DNA of 64,000 bases from the NCBI GenBank assembly GCA_034359265.1, contig CP136891.1, positions 55,010,501-55,074,500 of the forward strand, given 5' to 3'. A program made the position numbers and the translations under genes. A model generated the notes under the pieces. The model made no database searches. It was given only the letters and a program-made list of their open reading frames with translations, and had not been told where the DNA came from. Below, one piece after another: positions 9,649 to 64,000 of this stretch (positions are counted from its first letter, which is position 1; every line of letters starts with the position of its first letter). Source of the DNA: Canna indica. Lineage: Eukaryota > Streptophyta > Magnoliopsida > Zingiberales > Cannaceae.

Positions 9649-9755
9649 CTTCTTCTCCATTCTCTCTCCTTTAACCTTCTCCTCGCATCCTCCTCCCCAA
9701 TAAACCTCTCCCTTCCAAAAGGGAGCAGGGTGGCGCAAAGAGAGGGAGAAGCACC

Positions 9756-11326
9756 ATGGAAGGGGGAGGAGGCAAGGAGGAGATGAAGCGGTACATTTCG
9801 TCGGAGGAGCTCCGGACTCACAACAAGCCCTCCGACTTGTGGATCTCCATCCGAGGCAAAGTCTACGACGTCAGCGAGTGGGTCCACGTCCACCCCGGCG
9901 GCGAGATTCCCCTCCTCAACCTCGCCGGTCAGGACATCACCGACGCCTTCATCGCCTACCACCCCGGCGCCACCTGGACCATCCTCGGCAGCAGCCGCGT
10001 CCCACTCGTCGGCTACCTCTCCGACTACCGCGTCTCTGCCGTCTCCAAGGACTACCGCCGCCTAGCAGCCGAGTTCTCAAAGATGGGCCTCTTCGAGAAG
10101 AAGGGCCACACCACGCTCATCACCCTCGCCACGATGAGCCTCCTGTTCGCCGGCGCCGTCTACGGGGTCCTCTGCTCCTCCAGCTTCTGGGTCCACGTCG
10201 GCTGCGCCGTCCTCATGGGCTTCCTCTGGATGCAGTCCGGATTCCTCGGCCACGACTCCGGCCACTACAACGTCACCGGCAGCAAATTCCTCAACTGCTT
10301 CATGCAGGTTTTTAATTTTAATAAATTTCTTTTTTTGTTTTAAATAAAAACATCATATATTTGAATATTTTATTTCATAAAATTCAAACACTTTACCAAA
10401 TCTAAGATCGAACCAAGCATATGAAGTCGGTTTGGTTCGATTTGGCGGGTTGAACCGACTAGGGCTAATTATGCGATATTAATTATTTATGGGGTTGAAT
10501 TAATACACAGGTGATAGCTGGCAATTGCTTGACCGGAATCAGCATCGGGTGGTGGAAGCGCAACCACAACGCTCACCACGTGGCCTGCAACAGCCTAGAC
10601 TTCGACCCGGACGTGCAGCACATCCCGCTGTTCGCCGTCTCGAACGAGCTATTCCGCAGCCTGACCTCCAAGTTCTACGAGCGCAAGATGCAGTTCGACG
10701 CGGCGGCGCGGCTGTTCGTCAGCTACCAGCACTGGACCTTCTACCCGGTCATGTGCGTGGCCCGGGTCAACCTCTTCCTGCAGTCGCTGCTACTGCTGCT
10801 CTCCAAGAAGCGCGTCCCAGGCCGGCGACTGGAGTTCGTAGGCATTATGGTGTTCTGGATCTGGTTCCCCTTCCTGGTGTCGTGCCTCCCGAGCTGGGGA
10901 GAGCGGGCCCTCTTCGTGCTCGTCAGCTTCGCCATAACCGGCATCCAGCACGTCCAGTTCTGCCTGAACCACTTCTCGGCCAGCGTCTACATTGGGCCGC
11001 CGTGCGGCAACGACTGGTTCGAGAAGCAGACGAAGGGGACGCTCGACATCGCCTGCTCGCCGTGGATGGATTGGTTCCACGGCGGGCTGCAATTCCAGGT
11101 GGAGCACCACCTGTTCCCGCGGCTACCGCGGGCGCATCTCCGCCAGATCTCGCCGTTGGTGATGGAGCTCTGCGAGAAGCATGGCCTGCCCTACTCTTCC
11201 TTCTCCTTCTGGGAGGCGAACGTGAGGACGATAAGGACGCTGCGGTCGGCGGCGCTGCAGGCGAGGGACCTGTCGAAGCCGGTGCCGAAGAACTTGGTGT
11301 GGGAGGCCGTCAACACCCACGGATGA
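9756..11326 (+). CDS. SLD: Sphingolipid Delta8-desaturase (cytochrome b5 fusion), two exons
   Basis: The enzyme inserts a C8-C9 double bond into the long-chain base of ceramides in the ER membrane. Exon 1 is 9756-10307 and exon 2 is 10511-11326; the junction is phase 0 and gives 455 aa, the usual length. An N-terminal cytochrome b5 domain (about residues 10-90) carries the heme motif HPGG at 46-49 and a second heme histidine near 69. The desaturase domain has His boxes HDSGH (166-170), HNAHH (203-207) and QVEHH (380-384); Gln in the third box is the hallmark of front-end desaturases. Hydrophobic stretches near 120-165 and 290-330 are membrane segments. The start is GCACCATGG, a strong plant context. 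Delta6 acyl desaturases share this architecture, but outside a few plant families such proteins are Delta8 sphingolipid enzymes. Coding GC is far above the flanks. The gene looks intact. Confidence 0.93.
10308..10510 (+). other. Intron of the desaturase gene
   Basis: The 203-bp intron begins GTTTTTAAT after ATGCAG and ends TACACAG before GTGATAGCTGG. It is AT-rich and sits between the first and second histidine boxes. Removing it joins residue 184 (Gln) to 185 (Val) in frame. Confidence 0.9.
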
Positions 11327-18591: not shown

Positions 18592-19630
18592 TCAATTGGA
18601 GTTGGGTATAAGCTTGTAAGGAGGCTTGTCCATGGTCGGAGAAGGATCATATGCTCCATAGTCATTTGTTTTAACCGTGAGGAACCTGGGATGAAGCCCA
18701 TCACCTTTACTTCCATTCTCCAGTAATTTGTTTTGTAAATCCTGGACATAATCAAATTTGACAAAAATAAAAATTAATTTTCTTGCTAAGGATACATGTT
18801 GTTTTTCCTTTTGCTGAGGTAATTATGTAGCTAATTTTGAAGGCAGCCTAACATGATTAATTAAGCTCCTTTTGCAGTACTTTTAAAAAAAAGAAAATTT
18901 CCATTTTATCATAACCAATACCTTTTCCGATGCTCCTCCTAGAAGAGAAGCTTTATCCATGAATTTTCTGCTTCCTACACAACAAACAGTGTGAAGAGTT
19001 AGGAACGGTTTCAAAAACTGGAGCTTCACATCTATCATTTGCCATGCCATGATGAAAATCCTTGCAAGATTGAAGATACTTTCTTTGAGCAATGCTTTTG
19101 AACTCAAACCAGGCCATGAATTTGTTGGATCACGAAGTTCCAGTTCAATCAGTCAAAAATTATTTTTTAATAAAAAAAATAAAGAATATACATAAACCAA
19201 TCTGGGTTTCTCCAGGTTTGGCTGACCCTTTCTTTCATTTTTGTTTGTATTTGTTCTTAATCAGGTTGTTAGCTGAGTTTTTGGCCATGATGAGTTTTGG
19301 GGGCTTGATGTGGAATGAGTTCCAACACAGCATTCAGTATGGTCTTAAAGACACTGCCTTGGAGTACTAAAATGATGATAAAACTTGCTTTTCTTAATGC
19401 ATGCATGATCATCAGTTATATAGCAAGCATGATGAATCTCTTGATCACTTCAGCTCAACAGTTTATAATTTTATATTCTACCAAGTACTTGAGACTGACT
19501 AAGACTAGCTAAGAAATTATTATAAGCAACTACTTAGAGGCGATTACCAACCTGCGAGTGATTCTGGGGGTAATGTTGCTGAGATGAGGAGGAAGAGAAT
19601 GACAACCTTTCCAAGTGCCTCTAACTCCAT
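18592..19630 (-). CDS. CIF/TWS1-type sulfated peptide precursor, three exons
   Basis: The product is a secreted 93-aa precursor. Exons on the minus strand are 19630-19552, 18974-18922 and 18741-18592, each bounded by GT..AG and joining in frame. Residues 1-26 (starting MELEALGKVV, hydrophobic core VILFLLISATL) form a signal peptide. A variable linker follows (GSRKFMDKASLLGG..). At 71-91 lies a block starting DYGAYDPSP and ending KPPYKLIPN, with a two-residue tail SN. Known CIF1/CIF2 peptides are 21 aa, start with a sulfated Tyr in DYG and end PPFKLIPN; the match in length, DYG start, P-x-P and PP(F/Y)KLIPN end is specific. In Arabidopsis CIF peptides act on GSO1/SGN3 and GSO2 receptors to seal the Casparian strip, and the related TWS1 peptide controls embryo cuticle. 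Which role applies here is unknown. Two LINE tails flank the gene without breaking it. Confidence 0.85.
18601..18663 (-). other. Predicted mature CIF-like peptide region (21 aa)
   Basis: These 63 bases encode residues 71-91. The Asp-Tyr start is the substrate motif of tyrosylprotein sulfotransferase. Relative to Arabidopsis CIFs, the usual Phe of PPFKLIPN is Tyr here. In Arabidopsis CIF1/2 the precursor ends at the final Asn; here Ser-Asn follow, so a short C-terminal trim may be needed, as known for TWS1. Confidence 0.8.
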
Positions 19631-21170: not shown

Positions 21171-21187
21171 AAGTGATTAGTGGTGTA
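21171..21187. repeat. LINE target-site duplication, left copy
   Basis: AAGTGATTAGTGGTGTA here is repeated exactly at 21804-21820 after a poly(A) run. This is a 17-bp LINE-type target duplication. Confidence 0.9.
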
Positions 21188-21803
21188 TCGTGGAGTATAT
21201 GATCATCTCCATGAGGCTCTTTGGCATAACAATTTGCCTCCTAAGATCTCCATATTCAATTGGCTATGGCTCAAAAATAGGCTTCTTACCCGTGATCACA
21301 TTGCTTCATGGGGAATCACAGCGGATACAGGCTGCCTCCTTTGTGTGGGGAACAATGAATCACATCTTCACCTATTCAAAGGGTGTCCATTTGTCAAAGC
21401 TGGTTGGAGAAGCTTCCTATCTTGCATTCGTGCATCTTTTTTCCCTATATATTATGCTTCATATTGCTTGCAATCCGGCTCTTCTTCAAAAATATTTCTG
21501 TCCAGAATGCGGATGTCCATTATCTGGTGCTGGTATATATGGTTTGAACGAAATTCACGTCTGTTCCGCCAAGAATCTTCTTCCTCTCAGACGCTGGCTG
21601 CTGCGGCCGCAAGTTTCTATATCGGTTGCTCAAAATATATTTCGTGTAGTCTGTCCCTGTAGTCGTAGTGTCATGTTTACTTATTTTTGCTTATGTTTTA
21701 TTTAAGTATGTCGTAAAACGTTTTTCATCTCCCTCCCCTTTATAACCTGTTATCTTTCAATTCTCTTGAATAAGATACTAGGTTTTCTTGCTTCAAAAAA
21801 AAA
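21188..21803 (+). mobile_element. 5'-truncated LINE insertion
   Basis: Contains an almost unbroken zf-RVT domain of a LINE polymerase read from about 21195 to 21660. It includes HNNLPPKISIFNWLWLKNRL, then CLLCVGNNESHLHLFKGCPF, where Cys-x2-Cys..His-x3-His..Cys is the zf-RVT pattern, and WYIWFERNSRLF. It ends in a poly(A) tail (about 21795-21803) and has 17-bp target duplications. The open frame and clear duplication suggest a fairly young insertion. Confidence 0.88.
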
Positions 21804-22515: not shown

Positions 22516-24913
22516 TGTAAGGGTTGAATTAATTTTGAGCCCAGTCCAAAATTAGAACTGGGCCTGTTCACGTGTTTGAATATAAAAAAAAAGGAGGACT
22601 CCATTTTCATTGGGCTCAGCCCAGCCCAAGCGAGCCAGACGAGTGGGTTGAGCCCACTATCCCCACTAGCGCCATTTGCGCTAGTTGCACATGGAGCCCA
22701 CCTTCTCCCGTTGCACATGTGAGCTGTTGCAATTGCTGCACGCAATTCGAGGCAACAGAGCAAACTACTTCAAATTCGCCTAGAATTGCGTTGAACAATG
22801 TAAACTTCAATCAAAATTACCTTTTTGCTTCCGCCAAAGAGAGCATGACATGGCGAGAGGCTGCATCTTTTACCAAGTTTCTGCACGAGATAAATTTTGA
22901 CATTCAGTCAAAATTGAATGGGCAACCAAATCATAGTCGCACGAATAAGACGAATGGGTCTAGATTCTACAAATTATAACTTTTCGGGATTTATATCATA
23001 TTTATCTTAATAAGTCGACTTTTATCATTTTGTCCTGTTGAGTATAAATAGAGGTAGTTCATTCCGAATATACCGTAGATAAAAGAGAGAAAATACTGAA
23101 AGAATTAGATATTCAAAAAATTGATAGTGCCGCTATCATCCTTTTCAAGGAGTGCCCTTTACCAAGTTTCAGCATATGACAAAGGAGTTCAGTTTCAAGG
23201 CAGAGATTGTAGAGACAATATTTCTACTCCATAACGATTTCAGGTTCTGTTTAATTTGAGATGGTGTGCAGTATTTTGAAGGGGGGTTCAGTTTTATTGT
23301 CACTCTTAATGTAGTTTTTTTCTGGAATTAATAAAGAAGTCCCCTCTTCTCTTCGTGGATATAGGACCGACACCTCGCCGTGTCCGAACCACGTTAACCC
23401 CTTGTGTCTCTTATTTATTATAATCTTGGTTTCGAATTTGGTTTTCTATTTCTATCATCAGGTTCGGATTTTGTCGATCCTGCAGAAAATTTCCCATAAT
23501 TTCCAAACAATTGGTATCAGAGCCTACTTCCCAACCATGGTGAGCACCAAATTCGATATAAGTTAGATCGCAATGTCAACTATGCACTATGGTCAATGAA
23601 GATGAAAGCGATCCTAACTATAGAGATGATACAACATGTCATCCTTGGTAAGGATAATATGCAAGGGACTGGGGAGGAGAAAGAATACAAGGAGCAAAAA
23701 ATGACTGCAATTTTGTACCTAAGCTTGTCAAACGAGGCACTTCGAGAGATTGTATCCTAGAGGATAGCTAAAGGTATTTGGGACAAGCTCACATCCTTGT
23801 ATCAAGACACAACTCTCACCGGCAAGATGACTTTGAAGCAGAAGCTACATTTCCATCATATGGCAAAAGGCACATCGGTCAAAGAGCACATCAATACCTT
23901 TCTGACAATCATCATGGACTTAGAGAATATGAGTATCAAAATCAAAGAGGAAGATAATTCCTTTTATGTTTACTTCCTTCTTCTTGTAAAAGTTTTAGTG
24001 AAATTATGCTTTATGACAAGATTACTATTACTCCAAAATAGGTGATCAATGCTCTTGTGTTTAAGGAGCTAATGGACACGCATCTTATATCGAATTCCTC
24101 TAGTGGAGGAAAAGGAGAAGCCTTCTACTCTAAGGAAGCAGAACGAGGTAACAAATCGAACATCACTTGTTATTACTGCAAGAAACGAGATTACATCAAG
24201 TCAAAATATCACAGTCTTAAGAAAAAGTTGCATCAACAAAATCAAGTCAAAATATCACAGTCTTAAGAAAAAGTTGCATCAACAAAATAAAGATCAAGAC
24301 ACACATATGGAGGTCTCTTGTGCAAATTTTGAGAAAGTAGAGGTATTGGTCGTGACAGATGGCACATGCACTGCCAAGATACACCGTGGGTGACAGTGGT
24401 CTCATTGGCGACAGCACACCTCAAGTCTACATGTATAAATTTTGCTTTCAAGGCAAGCCCTTCTCAGAGATATACAATGGGTTCCTAAGTCGAAGCAGGG
24501 AGCTGATTTTACCTACTTGAGCAACAGGCCACGTACAGGCCTTGTGGGAGAGGAGGATGACTTCTGAGGGCTACATCGGGCTAAATTTTGTGCTCGATCC
24601 AAAATTAGAACATGCATGTTCACAGTTTTGAATTCAAAAAGGGAGGACTGCATATTCACTAGGCTCGAGTCGGCCCAGGTGGGCCATGGGAGTGAGCCAA
24701 GAGCACCATCCCAGCTAGCGCCATGTGCACTGCACATGTGGGCTACTGCAATTGCTGCAAGCAATTCAAGGTAGCATTGCAAACTACTTCACATTAGAAG
24801 ATTTCGCCTCGAATTGCGTTAAACAACAAACTTTCTGTCAAAATTACCTTTTTGCTTCGATCAAAGAGAGAATGACACGGAGAGAGGCTACGTCTTTTAC
24901 CAGGTTTCTAAAA
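22516..24913 (+). mobile_element. Ty1/Copia element with gag only, truncated 3' LTR
   Basis: The 5' LTR is 22516-23509 (TGTAAGGG..AAACA) and is followed by a primer-binding site TTGGTATCAGAGCC at 23511. A diverged, truncated second LTR lies at about 24560-24913; it shares CCAAAATTAGAAC, GGAGGACT, the ACATGTGGGCT region and GAGAGGCT..TCTTTTACCA with the first. The ~1.05-kb interior encodes gag only. The right LTR breaks off near 24909, so no target duplication can be seen. Confidence 0.8.
23537..24400 (+). pseudogene. Copia gag pseudogene (UBN2-type)
   Basis: Starts at ATG 23537 (MVSTKFDI). Conceptual translation gives the Copia gag/UBN2 pattern: NYALWSMKMKAILT near 23575-23617, then a stop near 23758, IAKGIWDKLTSLYQDT, LKQKLHFHHMAKG and VKEHINTFLTIIMDLE to about 23930, then frameshifts. 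A decayed zinc knuckle (CYYCKKRDYIKSKY) lies near 24166; its His and last Cys are lost. A 48-bp tandem duplication near 24195-24290 (ATCAAGTCAAAATATCACAG) repeats part of it. No protease or RT follows. Confidence 0.8.
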
Positions 24914-28686: not shown

Positions 28687-30205
28687 TCAATTTCTTTTAC
28701 CCTTGTGTGGTAGCTCCCCCGGCCCTACAAAAGAAGATGAGACTTTTGGTACCCAAATGACTTTGGATCCTTGGGGATGAGTTGACCTTGGAATCCAAAG
28801 TGTGCTAGCAACACTTGGATTTCTCTTTAATGCGCAATCATAGATAGCATGGCCAAAAATATCACAACAAAAGTAATGTTCATTAAACTTCTTTTCATTT
28901 TTGTTATGGACATGAGATCTATCATTAGAATGCTTGACATGTGAACTATGATGAGCATGAGCATTCTTAAAGAAAACATTTTGATTTCTAAATGAGACGT
29001 TTTGATTTCTAGAGTTCTTAAAAGAAGGAACATTAATTTTCCTACTCAAGATCAAAATCTTATTTTTTAAATCATTCATTGACTTATGTAAAGCATGTAA
29101 TTGAGATTTTAACATGCAATTTTCATTTTTGATTTTCATATTTCAAATTTCAAGTTCTCATTCTCAATCTTGAAATCACTTTTGAAATCATTCTTTTCAT
29201 GCTCTAATCTATTTTCGAACTCATTATTTTTAGTTCTCAAATTTTCATTTTCATTTCTAAATTTTGAATTACTAATTAGCATTTCATTATTCTCAATTTC
29301 CAAATCATTATTTTGGCTTTTCAACTCTTTAATTTCTATCTTCTAATCATCATGGCAAGGATCAAATGAGTTAGTATTCGTTTTCTTATTTTCTAATTCT
29401 AAAGCATGCACATGAGAACTAAATTTAGAGTTTTCCTTTTATATCTTTTTAATTTCCTTATTTTTCTTTAAAAGCATGGCATATATTTTTGACATTCTTC
29501 TACTAACTCCTCATAAGACATGTTAAGGGAACTACAAGAGCTAGCATCACTATCAAAATCTTCATAATGATGAGAAGTTGAAGATTTTACCTCATCATTG
29601 AATCCCATGAGGTATAGGTGAGAAGTAGCTTCTTCATCATGACAAGAAAGTGCTTCATGTGATTCGTAGGTGGATGTTGAATCACTTGTTCTCCTCTTGG
29701 CTCTTTTCTTCAAGGAAGGACAATTCTTTTTAATGTGCTCATTTTCTTTGCCCAAGTAGCATATAACCTTCCTCTTTCGATTTTTAATGCTCCTTTGACT
29801 AGAGACACTATGAGCTTCAAAAACCATGTTAGTACTAGGGGGATGACAGTTGTCATCACCATCCTCATCTAAAGTGATAAGCTCCTCGGTTTTTGCATAG
29901 TCATATAGCATATTTAAACAAGCCCAAATAGCGAATGCGGATGAATAATGCATAATCTTTTCAAGTATATCATTTGAGAATGAGCAATATAGAAAGTGCA
30001 TTGTTTTAGCATTCACTTCAAACAATCTAACTTGTTCTTGAGTCCACTCATTAATGTCAATGGTGGGCTCAACATATTCATTCTTTAGCATACACCATAG
30101 ATCTAAACTTTGTGTTTTAAGAAATGTATACATCATACTCTTCCAAACACCAAAATTTACCTCATCAAACATAGGTGGTGCAAACGCTATACTCTCTAGT
30201 GCTAT
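28687..30205 (-). pseudogene. Sirevirus-like gag pseudogene
   Basis: Read from 30205 downward. The start codon is ATA instead of the ATG found in the related copy at 59888 (compare IALESIA with MALESVA). The N-terminal gag domain (FDEVNFGVWKSMMYTF..) runs to about 29900, a zinc-knuckle remnant (CYLGKENEHIKKNC) lies near 29757, and an acidic Ser-rich part ends in a stop at 29470-29468. A Lys/Asn/Glu-rich coiled-coil region (29324-28900) and a second knuckle-like CCDIFGHAIYDC near 28855 follow in other frames, ending with KVIWVPK and a proline/glycine tail. At least two frame changes are needed. Not functional. Confidence 0.82.
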
Positions 30206-30272
30206 TCTAGGATCGAGGCTAGATGTAGACGAGATGGTGAAATCTTAATCCACAACCCGCTCTGATACCAAA

Positions 30273-42612: not shown

Positions 42613-45600
42613 GTGGGGGGTGAACTGATTTTAGTGGGAGAGGATGATTTCATATCAGATACACTATCATGGTGTGACCTTAGAAACTTGGTATCAATAT
42701 TAGGTTACACTCGACCTAGAAAATTATGGTACAAAGATCCTCGGAAACCTTTATCTTCTAGACTAGTGGAGATAAAGACAGATATTAAAGTTAAGAAGAT
42801 GGTTCAATTCGGGATAAGTTGTGGGTGTATACACTTCTATTCAGAAGGAGATAAAGACTTTGAACTATTGAAAAAAAAGAAACAAGATGAAAGAGCTGAT
42901 GAAGATGTCAAAACTGAAAACCAGATGAGAATGTAGAGGAGGCTCATCATGAAGTAGATGTTGAAGATCAGAATGTAGAGCCTCATCATGAAGGAGCTGA
43001 CCCTATAATGGTCAAAATTGAGAAACTTGATGAGGCTGAGACTCATGATGAGGCTTATCATGAGGCTCATGAACATACTGATTTTGATGGAGATGATGAC
43101 ACAAGTGATGATGATGATGATGAGAAATATAGAATAGCGATGAGAAAAAAGAGAAGTTTTAATTTGCACAGTGAAAGTACCACTGGTGGAGGAGATGAGC
43201 ACAGGGAAGATGAGCAGAGGGAAGCTGAGGGTGGAAATAATGATTCATCAAGTGATATTTCAGGTGATAATGCTACATCAACTAAATTGGTGCAACACTT
43301 AACAATAGTGATGATGAAGATGTAAAAAAATTTAGAAAACGGAAAGGTAAGGGATTTAGGGGCAAAGAATCTGATGAATTTTGTCTTAACATGAGGTTTG
43401 AGTTAGCAGGATAATTCAAGCAAGCTGTTCAAGACTATGCTTTGAATAATGGGAAGACTATTAAGTTTATCAGATCTTGTGAGAAAAATGTAGAGGCTAG
43501 GTGTAGTGCCAAATGTCCTTAGAGAATTTATGGAAGGAATGAAGCATTTATGATTAAGATTTATAATTCCTGCAAGGAACAAGCAAACCTCATCTAAATG
43601 GCTTACATATCACTACATGGAAACTTTTAAGGAAAAACTAGAATGAAATGTACTTGAAATGCAAAGGGATATTAAACAATAATTTGTCATATCGGTCAGT
43701 AAGAATATATGTTATAGAGTCATAGCAAGGACATTGAAAGCTTTATCAGGCTTGTTGGTTGAGCATTATAAGATGCTGTCATCTTATGTAGCAGAACTGA
43801 AGAAGGTGTACAAACATGGGCTTTTTTCCACAATGGTTGAGAGGCATAACAGATTCAAGAGAATGTTTGTGGGGTTTGATGCATTGAAAGAAGGGTTTTT
43901 GGGTGATTGTAGGCCTGTGATTTCATTGGATGGATGTTTTTTGAAGACAAAAGTTGGTGGCCAACTACTGTCTTTAGTTGGTAGGGATAGGAATAATAAG
44001 ATGTTTCCAGTATGTTGGGTTGTGGTTGAATGTGAGAATGAAGACTCCAAGAGGTGGTTTTTGATAAGATTAAACATTTAGCCATTGCAGATGGTTTTGG
44101 ATGGACAATTATAAGTTATCAACAAAAGGTAATACTTATTTTTTGTCTACTTATGTTTGTTTTTTATCTCTCGTAGACTCTTACTTATGTTTGTTTTTTT
44201 ATCTCTTGTAGGGGCTTCAAAATGCAGATAGGGCTTTTATGCCTAATGCAGAACATAGAAATTATGCAAGACACTTATATGCTAACTGAAAGAAGAAGCA
44301 TTGTGAATATGCTTTGAAGAACCTTTTCTGGAAGGCTGCAAAGAGCACCACTAAAGCTGATTTCAATTAACACATGTACCAGATGAAGGTATTTTCTCAA
44401 GTTGCACATGATAATTTCATTACAATTGGTTCAAACAAGTTCTGTAGGTTTAAAATCAGTACATTGCCAAAATGTGAGGTCATTGACAATAACATGTCTG
44501 AATATTTTAATGGATATATTTTGAAGGCAAGAACCAGACTTTTAATTGACATGTTAGAGGATATCAGAAGGACTTGAATGAAAAGGATGGCCGAAAAGAG
44601 GAAAATGATAATGAAAAGTGATGATACCATATGCCTTAAAATTAGAAAAAAAACTAGAAGAGAACAATATTGTTAGTGGCTTCTGCGTAGCAACACATGC
44701 TGGATATAATAAGTTTGAGGTTAAACACATGGATAACAATTATGTTATAGAGCTACAGCAAAATAATTGCTCATGCAGGATATGGGAACTTACTGGCATC
44801 CCTTGTCCTCATGTCATTTCATCAATTCATTAGTTGGGAGAGGACCCCACAGAATATGTTCATGATTATTTTAAGAAGTCCACATACCTAAGGGCATATG
44901 TGCATCTTATTCAGCCATTAAATGAGAAAAAAATATGGGCAAAAGTTCAGTTTGAACCTATCTTACCTCCCATATTGAGAAGGCAAACAGGGAGATCAAA
45001 AAAGGTAAAAAACAAGGACAAGAGTGAGAAGGAAAATGAACAAGGAAATCCCACAAAGATGAGTAAGAGGGGGGGGGGGTGGAGATGAAGTATACAGTGT
45101 GCAATGCATATGATAACAACAAGAGGTCATGCAAAGACAAGGGTAAAGCACTAGTATCATCAAGTCAAATATCATCAAATCAGGTAACTCATTTGTGCTT
45201 ACTTGTTTATTAACAAATATGTTTTTTTTTACAAGTATATATACTTCAAATATAAGGGAAGAATAGGGGAAGGCCACGTAAGGATGTGCAGATCAATTCT
45301 GAGAACCAGGGTGTATAGTCACCTGTAAAGATACCAAAGATAGTTGTTATAAAGAGACCTGTAAGTTATGAGAGTCTTGTACACAATGAGAGGGTATAGG
45401 CAGCAAAAGAATATGGAGTAACAGTTGGGACTTAAACATGAAATACATATGTGCAGGTAAGTTATTTAATTTCAATTGTAAATTGTAGATTTCAGTTATT
45501 TAATTTGAGTATCTAATTCTAAGTTTTATGTAGATGTTTAATACACAAGTTAGAATAATCCATGAAGGTAGATTTAGATGAGAGCAGTTTGCCCATCCTC

Positions 45601-61203: not shown

Positions 61204-61502
61204 TTCGGATGCGCGCCGGAATCGTCCACTTCGGACGCGCGCCGGAATCGTTCACTTCGGACGCGCGCCGGAATCATCCAATTTGGACTCGCGCCGGAAT
61301 CGTCCAATTTGGACGCGCGCCAGAATCGTCCAATTCGGATTCGCACCGGAATTGTCCACTTCGGACGCACACCGGAATCGTCCAATTCGGACTCGCGCCG
61401 GAATCGTCCACTTCGGACGCGCGCCGGATTCGTCCAATTCGGACTCGCACCGGAATCGTCCACTTCGGACGCGCGCCGAAATCGTCCAATATGGACTCGA
61501 AC
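61204..61502 (+). repeat. 26-bp tandem repeat, about 11 copies
   Basis: The unit is CGGAATCGTCCA(C/A)TTCGGAC followed by (G/T)CGC(G/A)C, from 61217 to 61502 with a partial unit before. Two variants (CACTTCGGACGCG and CAATTCGGACTCG) partly alternate, suggesting a 52-bp higher-order unit. Because 26 is not a multiple of three, all frames stay open and give spurious periodic proteins. Confidence 0.92.
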
Positions 61503-61886: not shown

Positions 61887-61960
61887 ATAAATCCCGAATG
61901 GAATAGGACAATCTCACCTAAAGACATTAACCAAAGAAATTGTCATTGATTGACAGAATC

Positions 61961-64000
61961 ATGTCGGCTGATCGAAGTTGGATGTACCGACGTCTTGATC
62001 GTGGAGCTTTAACGAATGAGTTTCGATTAGGCGTAACGTACTTCCTAAATTTCGCCTATTCGAATCGGAATTTCGTTAGCATGGGTGATCAAATCCGATG
62101 TCTGTGCCGCATTTGTTCAAATGGACGATTTTTGGATCGGGAGACTGTCACTCTGCATCTATATAGCAAAGGATTTGCACCAAGATATTTTCTATGGACT
62201 TGTCACGGGGAGTCACGCGAAGTCGGGACGTCGAGCAATCCTGTCGTTCAGACATATGGTGAATCTTCCTCTGCTGGTGCTTCTTCATCTAGTCAATGTA
62301 ATCCCTATAGAACTATGATACTTGATAGTCTTGGGGGTCAATTCCGCCTGAATGATAATGTTGATCGGCCAGATCTTCAGACATCAGTCCCACCAGATAC
62401 TACAGCGGTTGATATCACAGAAGTAGGGGCTGCGGTAGAGATTGAATTACCGAATAAAGAAGCTGCAGAATTTTACGAGATGTTGAAAGCTGCCGATGAA
62501 CCTTTGTATGAGAATTGTCCTAAATACACTAGGTTTTCAGCAATGACACAGCTCTTAAACATCAAGGCCGATTGTAATATCAGCGGAGTTGCGTATGATC
62601 GGATTGCTGGATTGATTAATGGAATACTGCCTACTGATAACAAGTTTGAGCCTACTTTTTATAAGACTAAAAAGCTGATGAGAAAATTGGGGCTTGGGTA
62701 CGAAAAAATACACGCGTGCCAAAATAACTGCATTTTATATTATAAAAAAAATGTGCAGTTGAATAAATGCCCTGTATGTCAACACCCTCGTTACAAGGAG
62801 AAGAAATCGGTCCGACAGAAAAATATCCCGTTTAAGGTGCTTCGGTATTTTCCACTAACACCGAGGCTTCAAAGATTATTCATGTCGGAAAAGATAGCCC
62901 CCTACATGAGTTGGCATGCAAGAAGTCGTGATGATACAGTAATGACTCATCCATCTGACAGTGAAGCATGGAAACATTTGGATACATGTTATCCTTCATT
63001 TGCTATGGATACTAGAAATATCAGATTGGGATTGTGCACAGATGGTTTTAATCCGTTTGGACATTCTGCAACTCCTTATTCAGTTTGGCCAGTGCTGCTG
63101 ACAGTTTATAATTTGCCACCGTCAATGTGCATGAAAGATGAATTTATTTATCTTTAGATGATTATTCCGGGTCCTAAGGGTCCGCGAAAAGAAATTGACA
63201 TATTTCTCAGACCCTTGATAGATGAATTGAAAACATTGTGGACTGAGGGAGCTGTCACTTATGATTGTCATCGGAAGCAAAACTTCAATTTAAAGGCCGC
63301 GGTCTTGTGGACAATCAATGATTTCCCCGCGTACGGCATGTTGTCGGGTTGGAGCACTCACGGCCGACTCTCTTGCCTGTATTGTATGGAACACTCTAAA
63401 TCAATCAGTCTTCAGAACGGACGAAAAATCTCATTCTTTGATTGTCATCGTCGATTCCTACCGGTTCATCACCAGTATCGAAGAAATCGTAATAAATTTA
63501 CTAAGGGCAGAGTCGAAAGAGATGGGTCACCACCGATGTTGTCTGGTGAACAAATGTTAGCACGTGTTTCAGCACTTCCAGATATAGTATTTGGTCGCAA
63601 TGAAAGAGTGTCAGGTTTTGGCCAAACACACAACTGGGTGAAAAAAAGTATCTTTTGGGAATTGCCCTATTGGAGTTCATTATTGATTCGACATAATTTA
63701 GATGTCATGCACATTGAAAAAAATGTGTTTGATAATATTTTCAACACTGTGATGGATATTTTTGGAAAAACTAAAGATAATGTCAAAGCCCGACATGATC
63801 TGAAAATACTTTGTAAAAGACCAGAGTTGGAGTTACAAGAGGTCAACGGACGATATCTGAAACCGAAGGCCCTATATGTGTTAAATAAACAACAGATCAA
63901 AGATGTTTGTCAATGGGTAAAAGAACTCAGATTACCCGATGGATATGCTTCAAACTTATCTCGATGTGTGAACGTCGATGATTGCAAAATATCAGGGATG
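61961..64000 (+). CDS. CACTA TNP2-type transposase, one in-frame stop, partial
   Basis: Begins at ATG 61961 (MSADRSWMYRR) and is open to TAG at 63155-63157 (398 aa); the same frame then stays open for 281 codons to the window edge. A transposase-associated domain lies at about residues 5-85 (WMYRRLDRG, then CRICSNGRFLDRETVTLHLY). The TNP2 (Transposase_21) domain begins near residue 240: GLGYEKIHACQNNC, NKCPVCQHPRYK, VLRYFPLTPRLQRLF, LGLCTDGFNPFG. After the stop come MIIPGPKGP, DFPAYGMLSGWSTHGRLSC and HNLDVMHIEKNV. Cutting and joining DNA is the family's role. The single nonsense codon, in an otherwise clean frame, suggests a recent loss or readthrough. The 3' end is outside the window. Confidence 0.9.

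What the first reader, a model, noticed from the sequence alone, without database searches (positions are those of the whole stretch)
18592..19630. CIF/TWS1-type sulfated peptide gene hidden in three short exons
Seen: exons 19630-19552, 18974-18922 and 18741-18592 join in frame with GT-AG borders to a 93-aa protein with a signal peptide and a C-terminal 21-residue block starting DYGAYDPSP and ending KPPYKLIPN. Known: CIF peptides are 21 aa with a sulfated DY start and PPFKLIPN end, and signal through GSO1/SGN3 and GSO2. Inference: this is a functional small signalling gene that ORF-length filters would miss. It sits intact between two LINE insertions.
Basis: partly seen in the sequence, partly recalled or inferred. 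Interest (0 to 1): 0.85.

Follow-up and report, generated by a model that had tools for sequence, protein, structure and literature searches.

The report
Ordinary root-barrier peptide hormone gene
This is one of three Canna genes found here for a known plant hormone peptide (CIF) that tells roots to seal their inner diffusion barrier; the gene looks real and intact but was already predicted, and what stands out is a Phe-to-Tyr change shared with banana and two extra residues at its end.

Summary
The three exons join in frame with GT-AG borders to a 93-aa secreted-type precursor. The window is from Canna indica, and the identical protein is already a predicted entry, "hypothetical protein Cni_G06736": unnamed, not hidden.

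It is a CASPARIAN STRIP INTEGRITY FACTOR precursor of CIF1/CIF2 type, not TWS1 type. Its block matches solved CIF2, soybean and tomato xylem-sap CIFs known from mass spectrometry, and 119 further listed relatives. Two Canna paralogs on contig C3 and intron-position evidence support the gene model. A CIF profile scores 64.4 bits here, against at most 11.5 in 100 random windows.

Two unusual details. Phe16 is Tyr, shared with orthologous banana copies (clade 99/98). The precursor runs two residues (SN) past the usual last Asn; 122 of 125 held proteins stop there. The tail looks like a 6-bp tandem duplication.

Expression, sulfation and receptor binding were not testable; receptor and sulfotransferase searches of the Canna genome did not complete. 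New member of a known kind; interest low.

The parts
19552..19630 (-). Exon 1 (79 nt, ends in phase 1): start codon and signal-peptide-like region MELEALGKVVILFLLISATLPPESLA (residues 1-26)
   Evidence: peak hydropathy VVILFLLISATL; aligns with ...LAG of relatives. No signal-peptide predictor was available.
18975..19551 (-). Intron 1, GT..AG, 577 bp, phase 1
   Evidence: phase 1 intron at the same place in the models of Canna paralogs L005 and L006
18922..18974 (-). Exon 2 (53 nt), residues 27-44, variable pro-region
   Evidence: counterpart of 47 nt in L006
18742..18921 (-). Intron 2, GT..AG, 180 bp, phase 0
   Evidence: same place in L006; isoform pairs of Quercus and Rhodamnia and read-through ORFs P0031/P0034 break at the same alignment column (inference from proteins)
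18592..18741 (-). Exon 3 (150 nt with TGA stop), residues 45-93
   Evidence: genome match to residues 44-93
18664..18681 (-). LTVKTN, conserved stretch just before the mature block (residues 65-70)
   Evidence: Identical in Musa P0008/P0012, Asparagus P0007, Phoenix P0010, Elaeis P0011
18601..18663 (-). Predicted 21-residue mature CIF peptide DYGAYDPSPTMDKPPYKLIPN (residues 71-91)
18595..18600 (-). Two extra codons (Ser-Asn) after the usual terminal Asn; 18605-18600 CCAACT and 18599-18594 CCAATT look like a 6-bp tandem duplication
   Evidence: Sequence; a tail is found in 3 of 125 held proteins; the duplication is inference
21177..21659 (+). LINE fragment (zf-RVT domain) 1.5 kb upstream of the start codon
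17702..17803 (+). Probable LINE tail remnant 0.8 kb downstream of the stop
   Evidence: 14 of 34 identical to the upstream fragment; no Pfam match above cut-off

Best explanation
The locus is a three-exon gene for a CIF1/CIF2-type precursor. Shown from sequence: gene model, secreted-type N-terminus, pro-region with the LTVKTN lead, the 21-residue block, orthology to a Musa CIF. Inferred from the known family: the precursor enters the secretory pathway; Tyr2 is sulfated by TPST; prolines at positions 7, 9 and 14 can be hydroxylated; a protease frees Asp1; the two extra C-terminal residues are trimmed or tolerated. The peptide made in the root stele leaks through gaps in an unfinished Casparian strip, binds the GSO1/SGN3-type receptor on endodermal cells and triggers lignin sealing (and, as in rice, suberin) until the barrier shuts it out.
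For: Only PDB match is the CIF2 peptide of entry 6s6q, whose chain A is GSO1 (E 0.014, 12 of 21 identical). 16 of 21 identical to soybean GmXAP3, found in xylem sap with hydroxyproline in the full 21-mer and Tyr2 sulfation listed for a 17-residue form (PMC9369194 passages); 15 of 21 to tomato SlCIF1, sulfated and hydroxylated in xylem exudate, with mRNA detected only in roots (PMC9028419 passages). 150 of 151 candidates pass E<=10, 120 listed, many named CASPARIAN STRIP INTEGRITY FACTOR 1 or 1-like by the sources. Intron phases 1 and 0 shared with paralog L006. Canna plus Musa clade 99/98, and 98/95 when the mature block is left out. Rice CIF/SGN3 does the same job in a monocot (PMC10827307, whole text).
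Against: No transcript, proteomic or genetic data for Canna. Phe16 is Tyr and the C-terminus is extended, so receptor affinity could differ. Presence of the GSO1 receptor and TPST in Canna could not be tested: the genome search did not complete. No Pfam model matches. A placement of all seven Zingiberales rows in one clade is not rejected (p-AU 0.206), so the age of the duplication is open.
Confidence: 0.87

Rival explanations
1. A CIF gene that no longer makes an active ligand: the SN tail and Tyr16 mark a copy drifting toward loss, while the two canonical copies on C3 do the work.
For: The window copy alone among the three Canna copies has Tyr16 and a tail; Musa orthologs end LINN, so the C-terminus is changed in both lineages.
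Against: Open frame, GT-AG borders and conserved LTVKTN lead plus 21-residue block; Tyr16 is also in three other held proteins outside Zingiberales (P0067, P0095, P0096; the last two are listed as isoforms from Rhodamnia argentea). Codon changes in the block are not decisive: 6 of 13 and 9 of 15 changed codons are synonymous against the two paralogs.
Confidence: 0.1
2. A CIF-type ligand used elsewhere, such as pollen wall or embryo cuticle, like CIF3/CIF4/TWS1, with the tail as a protease gate.
For: CIF3, CIF4 and TWS1 have C-terminal extensions; subtilases cut those of CIF4 and TWS1 (PMC13082318 passages); this copy has a tail.
Against: Those peptides end in His, and the reported cuts are His-Gly; this one has LIPN-SN. 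The block is clearly CIF1/2-like (16 of 21 to soybean xylem-sap CIF), and the tail is only two residues.
Confidence: 0.06
3. Chance assembly of exons, not a gene.
For: Small exons; no transcript data.
Against: 64.4 bits against at most 11.5 in 100 random windows; shared intron phases with a paralog; identical prior prediction.
Confidence: 0.01

Closest known systems
Musa balbisiana C4D60_Mb01t15330 (P0012) and Musa textilis P0008, both without a functional name in the database
   Same: LTVKTNDYGAYDPSP lead and block, Tyr16; same clade 99/98
   Different: Musa ends LINN with no tail; Canna ends LIPN plus SN
Soybean GmXAP3 / tomato SlCIF1 (xylem-sap CIF peptides)
   Same: DYGxYDPxP....KPP.KLIPN; 16 and 15 of 21 identical
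   Different: Phe16; no tail in the Glycine and Solanum relatives looked at (P0077, P0091)
Arabidopsis CIF1 and CIF2
   Same: Secreted precursor of about 80 aa, 21-residue block, 13 and 12 of 21 identical
   Different: No C-terminal extension in Arabidopsis (PMC13082318 passages); Phe16
TWS1, CIF3, CIF4
   Same: DY start, GSO1/GSO2 ligands, C-terminal extension (passages)
   Different: End in His; reported cuts of CIF4 and TWS1 are His-Gly; block dissimilar to the window's

Membership tests
CIF family, CIF1/CIF2 type | Small precursor with N-terminal secretion signal | tested here: met
   93 aa; hydrophobic core VVILFLLISATL and S-L-A before G; aligned signal region in relatives. No dedicated predictor was run.
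CIF family, CIF1/CIF2 type | C-terminal-region block with DY start, conserved prolines, K-L-I-P-N end | tested here: met
   12 of 21 identical to CIF2, including D1 Y2 G3 P7 P9 P14 P15 K17 L18 I19 P20 N21
CIF family, CIF1/CIF2 type | Precursor stops at Asn21 (usual in CIF1/2, not defining for the family, since CIF3/CIF4/TWS1 are extended) | tested here: not met
   Two extra residues SN; 122 of 125 held proteins stop at 21; Neltuma alba P0054 also has SN
CIF family, CIF1/CIF2 type | Groups with CIF precursors in a tree and shares gene structure | tested here: met
   37-row tree, 99/98 with Musa copies; intron phases 1 and 0 as in paralog L006
CIF family, CIF1/CIF2 type | Tyr2 sulfation and proline hydroxylation of the mature peptide | not testable with these tools
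   Needs mass spectrometry; reported for soybean and tomato relatives
CIF family, CIF1/CIF2 type | Binds GSO1/SGN3 and triggers Casparian strip lignification; stele expression | not testable with these tools
   No expression or binding data; the genome search for the receptor did not complete
TWS1 / CIF3 / CIF4 | Mature peptide ending in His, with the reported His-Gly cut (CIF4, TWS1) | tested here: not met
   Window peptide has LIPN-SN; reference sequences read

The most novel reading that the evidence does not exclude
Zingiberales keep a separate CIF ligand (the window gene and its Musa orthologs) whose C-terminal half has been altered (Phe16 to Tyr, then LINN in Musa and an SN tail in Canna), so that it signals differently from the canonical CIFs: in Canna it might need trimming by a carboxypeptidase or subtilase before it is active, which would add a protease gate to Casparian strip surveillance.
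Probability: 0.1. Interest if true: 0.45.

Novelty: new member of a known kind. Interest (0 to 1): 0.2.

Why it matters
It adds three CIF genes in Canna to a hormone family reported from gymnosperms and angiosperms (PMC11855783 passages), and suggests a name for a protein now filed as hypothetical. If the C-terminal changes matter, Canna and banana offer natural variants for testing how GSO1/SGN3 reads the end of its ligand. Otherwise it is a routine annotation.

Tried and rejected
Rejected: chance exon assembly; TWS1 type (sequence comparison); a second CIF copy inside the window (next score 6.0 bits). Not reached: receptor, sulfotransferase (Pfam PF03567, chosen from memory) and LINE copy number in the Canna genome, because the genome search answered only once and gave a busy error. 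The first homology search found only the protein itself, and the second added five Brassicaceae proteins; I do not know why the Musa relatives did not appear then. A third search centred on the C-terminal region worked; 30 of its 150 hits were not listed and not inspected. The rice CIF paper PMC10827571 is not held, so rice is cited from the commentary PMC10827307. Intron positions in Arabidopsis or Musa DNA could not be checked; no plant genome other than Canna was at hand. Structure prediction was not run, since a short peptide without its receptor would say little. Signal-peptide prediction had no tool; hydropathy and alignment stand in for it.

Full report
What is there. On the minus strand, 19630-19552, 18974-18922 and 18741-18592 join to a 282-nt reading frame of 93 codons plus TGA. 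Both introns are GT-AG (577 and 180 bp) and more AT-rich than the exons. The protein starts with a hydrophobic stretch ending in ESLA-G, has a variable middle, then LTVKTN and the block DYGAYDPSPTMDKPPYKLIPN, and ends with SN.

Species and prior annotation. A search of 5.8 billion proteins returned the identical 93-aa protein as "hypothetical protein Cni_G06736 [Canna indica]". The window lies on a chromosome-sized contig of a 752.9-Mb, nine-contig assembly at C2:55010501-55074500. In the held paper library no paper holds both "casparian strip integrity factor" and "Canna".

Family. The only PDB match at E up to 10 is the CIF2 peptide of 6s6q (E 0.014), an entry whose chain A is GSO1. A search with the C-terminal 60 residues aligned to four published CIF peptides gave 150 of 151 candidates at E<=10; 120 were listed, the window's own protein among them, many named CASPARIAN STRIP INTEGRITY FACTOR 1 or 1-like by the sources. 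With five, 125 proteins are held, the window's own included. All 125 have the DY block; 122 stop exactly at residue 21. The exceptions are the window gene (SN), Neltuma alba P0054 (SN) and P0117, an unnamed sequence from a 754-base contig with a 38-residue tail. Position 16 is Phe in 117, Tyr in 6 and Ser in 2; position 21 is Asn in 123 and His in 2. The block is identical at 16 of 21 positions to soybean GmXAP3, 15 to tomato SlCIF1, 13 to AtCIF1 and 12 to AtCIF2. In soybean xylem sap the full GmXAP3 21-mer was listed with hydroxyproline at 9 and 14, and Tyr2 sulfation was listed for a 17-residue form with hydroxyproline at 7, 9 and 14 or 9 and 14 (PMC9369194 passages). For tomato SlCIF1 the representative 21-mer carries sulfotyrosine and one hydroxyproline (PMC9028419 passages). 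The prolines at positions 7, 9 and 14 are all present here. TWS1, CIF3 and CIF4 differ: they end in His and have extensions (27 residues in TWS1 and 13 in CIF4 by the published lengths and cut sites), with His-Gly cuts reported for CIF4 and TWS1 (PMC13082318 passages; PMC11534595 table).

More than chance. A profile from 71 distinct 30-residue blocks scores 64.4 bits at the locus. It was made from 116 of the 125 held proteins: Canna and the two other tailed proteins were left out, and six under 60 residues. The next place in the window scores 6.0 bits, and the best of 100 first-order Markov windows scores 11.5.

Gene model. Two further CIF genes lie on C3 of the same genome (four matches, two of them exons of the window gene). 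The one near 88.17 Mb has three exons with intron phases 1 and 0, as in the window: exons at L006 859-937, 2971-3017 and 3217-3351; its exon 1 was picked by a scan for hydrophobic phase-1 starts and is a prediction. The one near 46.28 Mb shares the phase-1 intron after LAG, but its second and third exons read as one, so it does not share intron 2. Intron 2 is also marked in other species: Quercus and Rhodamnia isoforms X1/X2 differ by four residues at that column, as alternative acceptors would give, and the read-through open frames P0031 and P0034 reach the shared sequence as WQ-DLESWE, just where the window reads CAG-GAT-TTA. This last point is inference from protein sequences.

Orthology. 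In a tree of 37 precursors the window gene groups with Musa textilis and Musa balbisiana copies that also read DYGAYDPSP and PPYKL but end LINN (support 99/98). The grouping holds without the mature block (98/95). The two other Canna copies end at LIPN and fall among other monocot copies without firm placement. A single clade of all seven Zingiberales rows is not rejected (p-AU 0.206). Another survey counted three CIF-family genes in Musa acuminata (PMC11855783 passages).

The tail. The end of the gene reads ATAC-CCAACT-CCAATT-GA, two 6-bp units alike at 5 of 6 positions. A tandem duplication of the end of an ancestral CCC AAT TGA would give exactly an added Ser-Asn; the C3 88-Mb paralog ends CCA AAT TGA. 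Neltuma may have done the same independently. The mechanism is inference. Whether the tail matters is unknown: soybean sap holds several C-terminally shortened forms of its CIF, so trimming of such peptides does occur.

How it most likely works. By homology with Arabidopsis and rice (PMC10827307, whole text): stele-made, sulfated peptide; leakage through gaps in the Casparian strip; GSO1/SGN3 activation in the endodermis; sealing. None of these steps was shown for Canna. I tried to look for the receptor and for a sulfotransferase family in the Canna genome, but the tool did not complete.

Surroundings. The upstream LINE fragment is real (zf-RVT, E 9.7e-18); the downstream one is a 34-residue remnant. 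Neither overlaps the gene. Verdict: a real, apparently intact, ordinary CIF gene, with small lineage-specific changes at the ligand's C-terminal half that could be tested but are not in themselves surprising.

Noticed in passing
window 9675-11326 (+): Cytochrome b5 plus fatty-acid desaturase gene of the sphingolipid long-chain-base desaturase kind (the subfamily name is recalled); the reading frame changes between about 10.34 and 10.50 kb, probably one intron.
   Followed up: partly
window 61204-61499: Minisatellite of 26/52-bp units (11 copies of 26 bp), open in several frames, shortly before a CACTA-type transposase.
   Followed up: no
window 61931-64000 (+): Transposase of the tnp2 (CACTA) kind with a Transpos_assoc domain and a stop codon at 63155-63157 inside the Transposase_21 match.
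   Followed up: no
window 23761-24042 (+) and 29471-30244 (-): Fragments of copia-type gag; the second match is below the Pfam cut-off.
   Followed up: no
window 43683-44078 (+): MULE transposase fragment.
   Followed up: no
P0054 (Neltuma alba): A legume CIF precursor has the same two-residue SN tail and Ser16 instead of Phe, which suggests the tail can arise repeatedly.
   Followed up: partly
P0056, P0078 (Triticum, Aegilops): Wheat-group CIF copies end PIPH instead of LIPN, a His end as in CIF3/CIF4/TWS1.
   Followed up: no
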